From Pararhizobium capsulatum DSM 1112 (GTDB taxonomy: Bacteria > Pseudomonadota > Alphaproteobacteria > Rhizobiales > Rhizobiaceae): a stretch of 64,000 nucleotides of DNA. The translations under genes were made by a program, and so were the position numbers. Below, piece after piece: positions 61,065-63,355 of this stretch (position 1 is the first letter of the stretch; the number at the start of each line of letters is the position of its first letter). The stretch is from positions 2,734,001 to 2,798,000 of the forward strand of contig NZ_JAUSVF010000001.1 in the NCBI RefSeq assembly GCF_030814475.1. The letters are read 5' to 3'. A model generated the notes under the pieces. That model saw only the letters and a list, made by a program, of their open reading frames with translations, made no database searches and was not told the origin of the DNA.

Positions 61065-61934
61065 ATGGCGAAAGTTGCGTTTATTGGTCTTGGCGTGATG
61101 GGTTATCCCATGGCCGGTCACTTGAAAGTCAAGGGCGGCCATGATGTCACGGTCTATAACCGCACATCAGCCAAGGCGGAAAAATGGGTCGCTCAATTCG
61201 GTGGAAAATCTGCGCAAACGCCTGCCGCGGCTGCCGATGGTGCCGATTTCGTCTTCTGCTGCGTCGGCAATGACGACGACCTGCGCTCCGTCACGATAGC
61301 CAGGGATGGTGCCTTCGAGACTCTGAAGGCAGGCGCTGTCTTCATCGACAACACCACCGCTTCGGCCGAGGTAGCCCGTGAACTCGACACCGCCGCAACC
61401 GCCCGCGGTGCCCATTTCATCGACGCCCCGGTCTCCGGCGGCCAGGCCGGCGCAGAAAACGGTCTTTTGACGGTAATGTGCGGCGCTACCCCCGAAACCT
61501 TCGATCGAGCACGCCCGATCATCGATGCCTACGCCCGCATGGTCGGCCTGATGGGTCCCGCCGGTTCCGGCCAGCTCTCCAAGATGGTCAACCAGATCTG
61601 CATCGCCGGCCTCGTCCAGGGCCTTGCCGAAGGCATCCACTTCGCCAGGAAGGCAGGCCTTGACGTCGAAGGTCTCGTTGACGTCATCTCCAAGGGTGCC
61701 GCAGGCTCCTGGCAGATGGAAAACCGCCACAAGACCATGAACGCCGGAAAATACGATTTCGGCTTCGCCGTCGACTGGATGCGCAAGGATCTGGATATCG
61801 TGCTGACCGAGGCCCGCCGCAACGGCGCCAAGCTGCCGGTAACCGCACTGGTCGATCAGTTCTACGGCGACGTCCAGGCCCTCGGAGGAAACCGCTGGGA
61901 CACGTCCTCACTGCTGGCACGGTTGGAGAAATAA
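61065..61934 (+). CDS. 3-hydroxyisobutyrate dehydrogenase-family oxidoreductase
   Basis: A 289-aa beta-hydroxyacid dehydrogenase: NAD(P) site VAFIGLGVMGYPMAGHL, substrate loop FIDAPVSGGQAGAENGLLTVMCGA, catalytic lysine region GSGQLSKMVNQICIAGLVQGLAEGIHFA and C-terminal KDLDIVLTEARRNGAKLPV. The family includes 3-hydroxyisobutyrate, tartronate-semialdehyde and related dehydrogenases; motif reading does not separate them. VYNRT after the glycine motif favours NADP over NAD. GGGAGAATT precedes the ATG. Confidence 0.9.
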   Translation: MAKVAFIGLGVMGYPMAGHLKVKGGHDVTVYNRTSAKAEKWVAQFGGKSAQTPAAAADGADFVFCCVGNDDDLRSVTIARDGAFETLKAGAVFIDNTTASAEVARELDTAATARGAHFIDAPVSGGQAGAENGLLTVMCGATPETFDRARPIIDAYARMVGLMGPAGSGQLSKMVNQICIAGLVQGLAEGIHFARKAGLDVEGLVDVISKGAAGSWQMENRHKTMNAGKYDFGFAVDWMRKDLDIVLTEARRNGAKLPVTALVDQFYGDVQALGGNRWDTSSLLARLEK

Positions 61935-61951
61935 AGAGACAGGAAGCCTGT

Positions 61952-62560
61952 TTAACAGCTTCGGTTAATCCAGGCATCGCCGGGATCAATATCCAGCGCC
62001 GATGAGACACAAGCGTGAAATTGGTGGTCGAGCGGATGGGTGGGATCAAGCCCGGTAAAGACTATATCGCGATCGACCAGTTCGAGCTTCTTTGCCGGCT
62101 CTTCTCCACTGTTGTCGTAAGGCAATACGGCATCGCAAAGAGGGATTGCTCGTCCAAGATTGTGGAAACATCGGCTGTAACGGCGGCGAATGACATCTTC
62201 AGGGATGTCATGACCACCGAGTTGAACACGTTGACGAACGCGGAGAACATGCAGATCGATGGTAGCCAGTGCGATAAAGACGAGAAGGATACGGTATCCT
62301 CTCTCCTTTGCGCCCATAATTATCTTCAACGAGCTTTCACTGCTAAAGGTCTCACGATCGTGGAAAAGAGAAGTGATCCGACGCAAGACTTCCCTACCAG
62401 CCGGTAGCGAAACACGTTCAGGCTGATCGGGATCGATCTTGCGAGCGTTCAGATCAGCATTGATGAAAACACCAGGAAAGAGAAAGATATCCTGAAAGCT
62501 GGATTTCCCGCCGCCATTAGGCCCCGCCAGCACGACGAGTTCAGGCGTGTCGCTCGCCAT
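61952..62560 (-). CDS. Zeta-toxin-like kinase (predicted toxin)
   Basis: A 202-aa P-loop protein starting MASDTPELVVLAGPNGGGKSSF, with Walker A AGPNGGGKS near residues 12-20, INADLNARKIDPDQPE, FSSESSL (in place of the common FETTLS), AKERGYRILLVFIALAT, then RVRQRVQLGGHDIPEDVIRRRYSRCF and DAVLPYDNSG. This is the zeta/PezT-related group (COG4185) whose members phosphorylate cell-wall sugar nucleotides or other targets. The ATG at 62560 lies inside the upstream 73-aa gene (20-bp overlap), as in toxin-antitoxin operons. The frame also opens with TTG at 62575. Toxicity is inferred. Confidence 0.78.
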   Translation of the reverse strand: MASDTPELVVLAGPNGGGKSSFQDIFLFPGVFINADLNARKIDPDQPERVSLPAGREVLRRITSLFHDRETFSSESSLKIIMGAKERGYRILLVFIALATIDLHVLRVRQRVQLGGHDIPEDVIRRRYSRCFHNLGRAIPLCDAVLPYDNSGEEPAKKLELVDRDIVFTGLDPTHPLDHQFHACVSSALDIDPGDAWINRSC

Positions 62561-62762
62561 TCTTGCCGCCGTCAACTGGTGATTTCATATGGCGCAATTT
62601 CTGTCCATCCGGCCGAAGCTCAACCACACCCGCATTGCATCGAGCATCATTGATGTAAAACACCGACACATCTCCCTCCCGTGCGGCACGACGCGCCTCG
62701 GCTGAAATAATCAACAAGCTTTCGCGGTGGTGAAGTCTTTCGATGGCGTTCATGGTGGTCAT
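62541..62762 (-). CDS. Candidate antitoxin of the zeta-like toxin, 73 aa
   Basis: A short soluble protein: MTTMNAIERLHHRESLLIISAEARRAAREGDVSVFYINDARCNAGVVELRPDGQKLRHMKSPVDGGK. I do not recognise a family; there is no clear ribbon-helix-helix or HTH motif, and the first half looks helical. Its stop lies 20 bp inside the toxin-like gene, so the two are translationally coupled, and a palindromic region lies just upstream. The start could be the ATG at 62762 or 62753; neither has a good ribosome-binding site. The antitoxin role rests on position alone. Confidence 0.6.
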   Translation of the reverse strand: MTTMNAIERLHHRESLLIISAEARRAAREGDVSVFYINDARCNAGVVELRPDGQKLRHMKSPVDGGKNGERHA

Positions 62763-62773
62763 GTTCTTGGAGA

Positions 62774-62817
62774 CTTTCGCGGGACTACGAGCTTATATCT
62801 TCATATGCCCGCGAAAG
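62774..62817. promoter_or_regulatory. Inverted repeat in the promoter of the candidate toxin-antitoxin operon
   Basis: CTTTCGCGGG (62774-62783) and CCCGCGAAAG (62808-62817) are perfect 10-bp inverted arms, 24 bp apart. The segment between and after them repeats GAGCTTATAT/GAGCTCATAT and is AT-rich. It lies 12 bp upstream of the 73-aa gene, a position suited to autorepression. Confidence 0.6.
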
Positions 62818-62866
62818 GTCAAAGTTAAGAGCTCATATGAACCTGTACGGCGATCCGGCTATCGTC

Positions 62867-63355
62867 TCAATCCTCCGCAGACTTCGCCTGTTCGAGGATC
62901 ATGTAGTCCAGCGGCAGCTGTGTCGTGTACTTGATCTGCTCCATCGCAAAGGCGGAGGAGACGTCGCGGATTTCGATCTTGGCGATCAGCCGCTTGTAGA
63001 AGGCGTCATAGGCGGCGATATCCGGCACGACGACGCGCAACAGGTAATCGACGTCGCCGCTCATGCGGTAGAACTCGACCACTTCCGGAAATTCCCCGAT
63101 AACCTCGGAAAAGCGCTTCAGCCACTCGATCGAATGGGCGTTGGTGCGGATCGAAACGAAGACGGTGACCTTGGTGTTGATCTTGACCGGATCGAGCAGC
63201 GCGACGCGCCCGCGGATCACGCCTTCCTCTTCCATCTTCTGGATACGGCGCCAGCAGGGCGTAGTGGAAAGACCGACCTTCTTGGCAAGATCGGCTACGG
63301 CGAGTGTGGAATCCTCCTGCAGAAGACGCAGGATTTTGCGATCGAGACGATCCAT
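62867..63355 (-). CDS. Lrp/AsnC-family transcription regulator
   Basis: A 162-aa regulator: helix-turn-helix MDRLDRKILRLLQEDSTLAVADLAKKVGLSTTPCWRRIQKMEEEGVI, then the RAM ligand domain with VTVFVSIRTNAHSIEWLKRFSEV and MSGDVDYLLRVVVPDIAAYDAFYKRL. It binds an amino acid and forms dimers or octamers. AAGGGGGC precedes the ATG. Two dyads immediately upstream suggest autoregulation. Its regulon cannot be inferred; nearby genes run in the same direction but are not obviously metabolic targets. Confidence 0.94.
   Translation of the reverse strand: MDRLDRKILRLLQEDSTLAVADLAKKVGLSTTPCWRRIQKMEEEGVIRGRVALLDPVKINTKVTVFVSIRTNAHSIEWLKRFSEVIGEFPEVVEFYRMSGDVDYLLRVVVPDIAAYDAFYKRLIAKIEIRDVSSAFAMEQIKYTTQLPLDYMILEQAKSAED

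What the first reader, a model, noticed from the sequence alone, without database searches (positions are those of the whole stretch)
61952..62817. Candidate zeta-type toxin-antitoxin module with an unrecognised 73-aa partner and palindromic operator
A zeta/PezT-like kinase overlaps by 20 bp a small upstream gene that does not look like any antitoxin family I know (no obvious RHH or HTH). A perfect 10-bp inverted repeat with 24-bp spacing sits 12 bp upstream. The kinase also departs from the usual motif (FSSESSL instead of FETTLS, and KSS instead of KST in the P-loop). The coupling plus operator argue for a real, perhaps undescribed, toxin-antitoxin type.
Basis: partly seen in the sequence, partly recalled or inferred. 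Interest (0 to 1): 0.72.

Follow-up and report, generated by a model that had tools for sequence, protein, structure and literature searches.

The report
Short-partner zeta kinase pair, toxin damaged
A rhizobial chromosome carries a small two-gene module of the toxin-antitoxin kind: a tiny antitoxin-like protein of an unnamed family, followed by a zeta-type kinase that has lost six residues at its substrate-binding motif and is therefore probably a dead toxin.

Summary
The two overlapping genes are real. The 73-aa gene (62541-62762, -) belongs to a small-protein family without a Pfam, NCBIfam or PADLOC match. A profile of that family, run over 394 genomes of the taxonomic family, gave 16 matches; all 12 with E <= 1.2e-12 lie just upstream of a short zeta-type kinase. 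Three corrections. (1) 'FSSESSL' is not a substituted motif: between P-loop and GGH the kinase is six residues shorter than the shortest of 118 measurable homologues, and the gap falls on the ETTL substrate motif. The toxin is probably inactive; 4 of the 11 other kinases in those 12 pairs contain stop codons. (2) 'KSS' in the P-loop occurs in 23 of 119 homologues. (3) The inverted repeat exists but was not seen upstream of 8 relatives. The pair sits in a lrp-garR slot that in 26 genomes of the genus holds this kind of pair (2), a ParDE pair (2), an AlkD-like gene (15) or no clear gene (7). Toxicity and neutralisation are untested.

The parts
62541..62762 (-). 73-aa antitoxin-like partner (70 aa in the database protein P0001); helix plus hairpin-like segment read from the alignment, no RHH/HTH match
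   Evidence: Best non-seed match (E 6e-6, 24.4 bits) of a 5-sequence profile of upstream partners among 5339 ORFs; HHalign probability 93.8%; no Pfam/NCBIfam/PADLOC match at E<=1
61952..62560 (-). short zeta-type kinase, 202 aa, probably inactive
   Evidence: 3145 homologues at E<=1e-3, 120 listed; the 119 non-self ones listed carry PF06414; own Pfam score 19.7 bits, below the 22.3 cut-off
62344..62345 (-). junction of a six-residue (18-bp) in-frame deletion relative to the homologues, at the ETTL substrate motif (between residues 72 and 73 in alignment A1)
   Evidence: Alignment A1; P-loop to GGH distance 102 versus 108-112 in 118 homologues
62774..62817 (.). perfect 10-bp inverted repeat, 24-bp spacer; possible operator, not seen upstream of 8 relatives
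62719..62727 (+). third 9-bp half copy of the repeat, inside the 73-aa gene
62867..63355 (-). Lrp/AsnC-type regulator, upstream flank of the slot
   Evidence: PF01037, PF13412; DNA match in 26 of 26 genus genomes
61065..61934 (+). beta-hydroxyacid dehydrogenase, called garR here for short; downstream flank of the slot, convergent
   Evidence: PF03446, PF14833; best NCBIfam model 2-hydroxy-3-oxopropionate reductase, below its cut-off; DNA match in 26 of 26 genus genomes

Best explanation
It is a type II toxin-antitoxin-like module: a short antitoxin (73 aa, probable helix plus hairpin-like segment, no recognised DNA-binding domain) encoded first and overlapping a short (~200 aa) zeta-type P-loop kinase. 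In intact relatives the kinase presumably phosphorylates a nucleotide-type metabolite and the small protein keeps it inactive by binding it (both inferred). In this genome the kinase has lost six residues spanning its substrate-binding motif, so the toxin is probably dead and the module is decaying, while the antitoxin frame is still open. The module sits in a chromosomal slot between lrp and garR whose content varies between sister species. Shown here: pair structure, partner family, linkage, slot, deletion. Inferred: toxicity, neutralisation, substrate, regulation, loss of activity.
For: Partner family. Linkage: of 16 partner-profile matches in 394 genomes, all 12 with E<=1.2e-12 lie just upstream of a kinase hit (8 of these 12 are neither seeds nor near-copies of seeds of the profile); of the 4 weaker ones, 3 lie beside a kinase or a kinase fragment and 1 (G043) does not. 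Across phyla, 16 of 18 non-seed profile hits (the window among them) are adjacent to a kinase, against 293 of 5339 ORFs overall (rows not independent). Coding signature: partner dN/dS 0.40 and 0.22 in two pairs of relatives, kinase 0.08 in the intact pair. Deletion. Mobility and decay: kinase matches in 577 plasmid records; in 7 of the 12 plasmid loci fetched (L119-L121, L123-L126) a 55-63 aa gene precedes the kinase; kinases with internal stops in 4 of the 12 pairs. Slot: (26 genomes). A characterised pair with a 197-aa zeta-like kinase and a small upstream antitoxin exists (PMC6362051, Rv0366c-Rv0367c).
Against: No toxicity or binding data. The open frame of 202 codons after the deletion, with P-loop, NAD and GGH motifs kept, could mean that the protein still has a function. 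The window's kinase scores below the Pfam cut-off. The 60 plasmid homologues listed are only 32-42% identical. Many kinases show no recognised short partner: by the profile, 21 of 125 loci have one adjacent at E<=0.05 (seeds included), and among the 30 kinase places about 16 do. The inverted repeat was not seen in relatives. No structure could be predicted (tool off).
Confidence: 0.72

Rival explanations
1. A functional toxin-antitoxin pair in which the shortened kinase works with a changed substrate pocket.
For: Frame remains open for 202 codons; P-loop, NAD aspartate and the RV..GGH/IRRRY segment are kept.
Against: None of 118 homologues measured is this short between P-loop and GGH; 116 of 119 match a loose ETTL pattern and the other 3 have near forms. 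In zeta/PezT the residues of the corresponding segment bind UNAG and nucleotide, and exchange of UNAG-binding residues gives nontoxic kinase-deficient variants (PMC3062530 passages, PMC6362051 section 6; the equivalence with ETTL is my inference). The window kinase has a long end branch in the tree (0.77 against median 0.28).
Confidence: 0.13
2. The antitoxin frame is kept by selection as an anti-addiction or immunity protein against incoming copies of the same kinase family, while its own toxin is lost.
For: Related pairs lie on rhizobial plasmids; in the 12 pairs no partner match has an internal stop, while the kinase is broken in 5.
Against: The partner is a third of the kinase's length, so fewer stops are expected by chance; the window's partner does not match the profile of the plasmid (M-type) partners directly, so cross-neutralisation is doubtful.
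Confidence: 0.1
3. Not toxin-antitoxin at all: a small regulatory subunit and a metabolic nucleotide kinase.
For: No toxicity shown for this subfamily in what I could read; kinase under strong purifying selection in one intact pair (dN/dS 0.08).
Against: Patchy presence (kinase in 9 of 101 genomes, own included; pair in the slot in 2 of 26 genus genomes), plasmid carriage, a ParDE pair at the same place in 2 of 26 genomes, stop codons in 4 of 12 paired kinases.
Confidence: 0.1

Closest known systems
Rv0366c-Rv0367c (non-canonical PezAT of M. tuberculosis; PMC6362051: abstract, section 6 and passages seen; PMC6504116: passages seen)
   Same: Kinase of 197 aa with zeta features, small antitoxin gene upstream, predicted one operon; by its abstract, overexpression of the kinase is bacteriostatic and rescued by the partner
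   Different: Its antitoxin is 129 aa with a predicted N-terminal ribbon-helix-helix (Pfam ParD_like, PF11903); the window's partner is 73 aa without such a match. ParD_like partners also occur beside other kinases found here (L005, L077; L007 and L106-L110 by eye)
epsilon/zeta and PezAT (PMC3062530, PMC4803016: passages seen)
   Same: P-loop kinase toxin and small antitoxin
   Different: No zeta or PezT entry among the best 60 of 160 PDB sequences matched by the kinase profile; no epsilon or PezA match for the partner; kinase shorter
EzeT of E. coli (PMC4803016 passages, PMC4826407 part 1 of 3 seen; original paper not seen)
   Same: Zeta-like UNAG kinase controlled by a short antitoxin segment (about the first 83 residues)
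   Different: Fused in one polypeptide; its sequence was not compared here
TASmania pairing ParD_like.Zeta_toxin (PMC6504116, passages seen)
   Same: Zeta-like toxin with non-epsilon antitoxin; its authors say it could represent a new family
   Different: Different antitoxin family; the passages seen do not mention the short partner

Membership tests
epsilon/zeta or PezAT | toxin matches Pfam Zeta_toxin above its cut-off | tested here: not met
   19.7 bits against 22.3; the 119 listed homologues carry precomputed PF06414, so the wider family is right but this member falls below the cut-off
epsilon/zeta or PezAT | epsilon antitoxin or HTH-PezA partner | tested here: not met
   No Pfam or NCBIfam match for the 73-aa protein at E<=1
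epsilon/zeta or PezAT | UNAG-binding GTxR segment | tested here: not met
   Homologues have ETTL there and the window has a deletion; equivalence of the segments inferred from PMC6362051 section 6
Rv0366c-Rv0367c type (zeta with ParD_like) | PF11903 RHH antitoxin upstream | tested here: not met
Rv0366c-Rv0367c type (zeta with ParD_like) | short kinase encoded directly after its antitoxin | tested here: met
   20-bp overlap
Short-partner zeta pair (defined here) | partner matches the profile of upstream partners | tested here: met
   Found with a profile that excludes it: E 6e-6, HHalign 93.8%
Short-partner zeta pair (defined here) | PF06414-type kinase directly downstream | tested here: met
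Short-partner zeta pair (defined here) | kinase with intact ETTL substrate motif | tested here: not met
Type II toxin-antitoxin system | toxin harmful alone and neutralised by the partner protein | not testable with these tools
   needs expression assay
Type II toxin-antitoxin system | antitoxin (complex) represses its own promoter | tested here: inconclusive
   Inverted repeat present but not seen upstream of 8 relatives; promoter scan found no sigma-70-type site in 62500-63000

The most novel reading that the evidence does not exclude
The 73-aa protein belongs to an unnamed superfamily of very short antitoxins (about 50-78 aa: one helix plus a 'GTPvyv..dGk.v.e.P'-like hairpin) that pairs with short zeta-type kinases across phyla in both gene orders: upstream mainly in Alphaproteobacteria, directly downstream in Nitrospira, Verrucomicrobia, Planctomycetota, candidate WOR-3 and a cyanobacterial plasmid (E<=0.05), and more weakly in Proteobacteria such as Methylomonas. 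It would be a missing cognate antitoxin of many kinases now annotated only as 'zeta toxin family' or 'AAA family ATPase' genes.
Probability: 0.5. Interest if true: 0.62.

Novelty: new variant of a known kind. Interest (0 to 1): 0.46.

Why it matters
Short zeta-type kinases are common (3145 homologues at E<=1e-3 from one query; matches in 577 plasmid records) and, where annotated, are called 'zeta toxin family protein' or 'AAA family ATPase', often beside a 'hypothetical protein'. A recognisable short antitoxin family would let part of them be seen as pairs, make their toxicity and substrate directly testable, and suggest that a zeta-type toxin can be controlled by about 50-75 residues without epsilon, PezA or RHH domains. 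The lrp-garR slot is a clean natural case of modules present, exchanged with ParDE, lost, or with a decaying toxin at one chromosomal site.

Tried and rejected
Considered and rejected: FSSESSL as a variant motif (the length shows a deletion; an alignment that keeps E-S-S-L as the motif and deletes the next six residues is possible but fits worse by eye); KSS as unusual (23 of 119); the repeat as a conserved operator, an intrinsic terminator (the one site found is elsewhere, 62567-62581) or a known RNA (no Rfam match up to E 1 in 61800-63000); the 130-aa frame on the + strand (62015-62407) as a gene (no Pfam match; a mechanical frame). Single-sequence searches do not see the partner family: the database search found only itself, 101 relatives only the own genome, tblastn of the L013 partner in plasmids nothing. 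A phage search gave 4 weak kinase hits. The PDB profile search gave P-loop similarities and no zeta entry in the best 60 of 160. Repeated independent insertion in the slot was not claimed: in the tree the 4 labelled slot kinases, and P0010 (same protein as G622's), fall in one 17-row group (support 86/77, not starred) mixed with metagenome rows of unknown context; starred branches force at least 2 changes of the label for the 4 rows, so one old residence and several entries both stay possible. Direct window-to-D-type and window-to-M-type profile comparison failed (0.29% and 0.08%); the link runs through the other upstream partners (U-D 90%, U-M 94%) and is the weaker part. Partners in Clostridia (F group) could not be linked (U-F 0.8%).

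Papers: searches (open-licence PMC papers only; listings with titles and starts of abstracts, e.g. 30 of 137 and 15 of 353) and the passages read showed me no description of this short partner family. PMC2701414 holds none of the terms zeta, COG4185, PezT, epsilon. PMC5923241: passages only. Subscription papers, including the EzeT original, were not seen.

Full report
Observation. The two frames, their 20-bp overlap and the inverted repeat are present as described. The kinase starts at ATG 62560 (202 aa) and the small protein at ATG 62762 (73 aa; the database protein P0001 has 70 aa). The kinase queries I ran used 61952-62557 and so lack the first Met. The perfect 10-bp repeat is unusual (7 of 2000 shuffles; 8 of 615 tiles of the window). 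It was not seen upstream of eight relatives, whose best perfect repeats are 5-8 bp. No Rfam family and no sigma-70-type promoter above threshold was found there.

The kinase. Pfam gives Zeta_toxin only below its cut-off (19.7 bits versus 22.3). The large protein database gives 3145 homologues at E<=1e-3; the 119 non-self ones listed carry PF06414, and the ten best are 45-52% identical. Aligned with 33 of them, the window protein has a six-residue gap over the conserved aromatic-ETTL segment. The distance from P-loop to the GGH motif is 108-112 residues in 118 of 119 homologues (one not measurable) and 102 in the window; 116 of 119 match a loose ETTL pattern, and the other 3 have near forms. 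In zeta and PezT the corresponding segment binds nucleotide and UNAG, and exchange of UNAG-binding residues gives nontoxic, kinase-deficient proteins (PMC3062530 passages; PMC6362051 section 6). The residue equivalence is my inference. The window kinase also has a long end branch (0.77, median 0.28). Loss of activity is likely, not shown.

The partner. The 73-aa protein has no match in Pfam, NCBIfam or PADLOC at E<=1 and no single-sequence homologue but itself in the 5.8-billion-protein search or in 101 related genomes. Reading the gene before the kinase in relatives gave small proteins of 67-78 aa with the same layout beside the nearer kinases (L002, L003, L004, L013, L094). A profile of these five, without the window, ranks the window protein first among non-seeds in 5339 ORFs (E 6e-6); HHalign gives 93.8%. 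An alignment including the window finds 8 proteins in the database at E<=0.01, itself included, none with a Pfam domain; named sources are Rhizobium sp. 32-5/1, Oryzibacter oryziterrae and Xaviernesmea oryzae. A larger profile (A3, 9 rows, of which P0122 and L013 are identical) was then run over 394 whole genomes of the family and gave 16 matches in 15 genomes. All 12 at E<=1.2e-12 lie just upstream of a kinase found by a separate search; 8 of the 12 are neither seeds nor near-copies of seeds. Of the four weaker matches, G564 (second copy), G635 and G054 lie beside a kinase or kinase fragment, and G043 does not. Codon comparison of relatives gives dN/dS 0.40 (dS 0.22) and 0.22 (dS 1.64) for the partner, 67 codons each, and 0.08 (dS 0.80) for the kinase in the intact pair; the kinase ratio of the second pair could not be computed because its dS is saturated.

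Wider family. With these, the genome loci and 12 plasmid loci, 125 sources (the window counted) hold a kinase. The five-sequence profile also reaches 55-63 aa proteins upstream of kinases on rhizobial and Roseibium plasmids (annotated 'hypothetical protein') and 50-69 aa proteins directly downstream of kinases in other phyla: candidate WOR-3 (L068), Synechocystis plasmid pSYSG (L128), Verrucomicrobia (L037, L085), Planctomycetota (L040) and Nitrospira (L074) at E<=0.05, others such as Methylomonas (L035) and Crenothrix (L025) only at E 0.3-1.5. Of 18 non-seed hits at E<=0.05, the window included, 16 are adjacent to a kinase, while 293 of 5339 ORFs are (several rows are near-copies, so the P of 6e-19 is too strong). 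Against a universal partner: with the seeds, only 21 of the 125 sources have such a hit beside the kinase, and about 16 of the 30 kinase places do. Of the 12 plasmid loci fetched (60 listed, 577 in all), 7 have the 55-63 aa gene, L122 has only an unannotated frame of similar look, and L127-L130 have other neighbours, L128 with a downstream partner. Profile comparison links the upstream partners to the downstream ones (90%) and to the plasmid ones (94%). The window protein alone does not link to either, and partners in Clostridia stay unlinked. Twenty partners and candidates were given to Pfam and NCBIfam: matches above cut-off only for L080 (RelB; RelB_DinJ) and, in Pfam, L077 and L005 (ParD_like); a few others had weak matches to unrelated families.

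Slot. In all 26 genomes of the genus searched, garR and lrp have a match and lie close together. The stretch between them holds an AlkD-like gene in 15 (PF08713 checked on one, the others judged by likeness), a ParE gene (PF05016 in both) with a small gene before it in 2 (that small gene has no Pfam match at E<=1e-3; taken as ParD by position), a zeta pair in 2 (window and G018), and no clear gene in 7 (41-328 bp). The same lrp-pair-garR order occurs in G713/L013 (one organism or near copies), G034 and G526 (one genus, Xaviernesmea by inference), and G622 and G564. Lrp is 88-97% identical to the window's in these (G622 and G564 measured on part only), while the kinases compared with the window's are 50% (L002/G034), 40% (L004/G018), 47% (L013) and 47-49% (P0010, the G622 protein) identical. 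Whether this is one old residence with fast divergence or several entries is open.

Decay. Of the 12 genomes with a pair at E<=1.2e-12, the kinase is broken in 5: stops in G034, G654, G526 and G585, and the deletion in the window. None of the 12 partner matches has an internal stop. The window's genome holds a second kinase of the plasmid type on contig 3 (L011), cut short and followed by what looks like transposase sequence (by eye), with the first half of its partner missing.

Conclusion. It works like, and most likely is, a type II toxin-antitoxin module with a short, unnamed antitoxin, in a copy whose toxin is probably dead. Filing it under epsilon/zeta, PezAT or the ParD_like-zeta type fails on tested features. 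Toxicity, neutralisation, substrate and autoregulation are untested.

Noticed in passing
L011 (own genome, contig 3: 250493-250753): Second zeta-type kinase in the same genome, cut short after the ETTL motif and followed by transposase-like sequence (by eye); only the C-terminal half of its partner remains.
   Followed up: partly
lrp-garR slot in G001 and G025 (L142, L148): Sister species carry a ParE toxin gene with a small gene before it at the same place and on the same strand as the zeta pair.
   Followed up: partly
lrp-garR slot in 15 of 26 genus genomes (e.g. L133): AlkD-like DNA alkylation repair gene on the opposite strand occupies the slot.
   Followed up: partly
L068 1363-1521, L128 1422-1601, L037 3510-3668, L074 3516-3674 and others: 50-66 aa proteins directly downstream of zeta-type kinases, without an antitoxin-family match where tested: a reverse-order partner family.
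   Followed up: partly
L077 2528-2938, L080 1272-1625: Antitoxins with an N-terminal ribbon-helix-helix match (ParD_like, RelB) whose C-terminal end resembles, by eye, the hairpin-like segment of the short partners.
   Followed up: no
L054, L056, L058, L059, L063, L065, L091: Kinases of Clostridia with a conserved 63-73 aa upstream protein containing an 'sDG' motif, not linked by profile to the window's partner.
   Followed up: no
L002 / L186, L189, L187, L194: Kinases of this family with in-frame stop codons next to open partner frames.
   Followed up: partly
L020 140-397: 85-aa protein with a similar hairpin-like motif that is not next to the kinase; its own neighbour was not examined.
   Followed up: no
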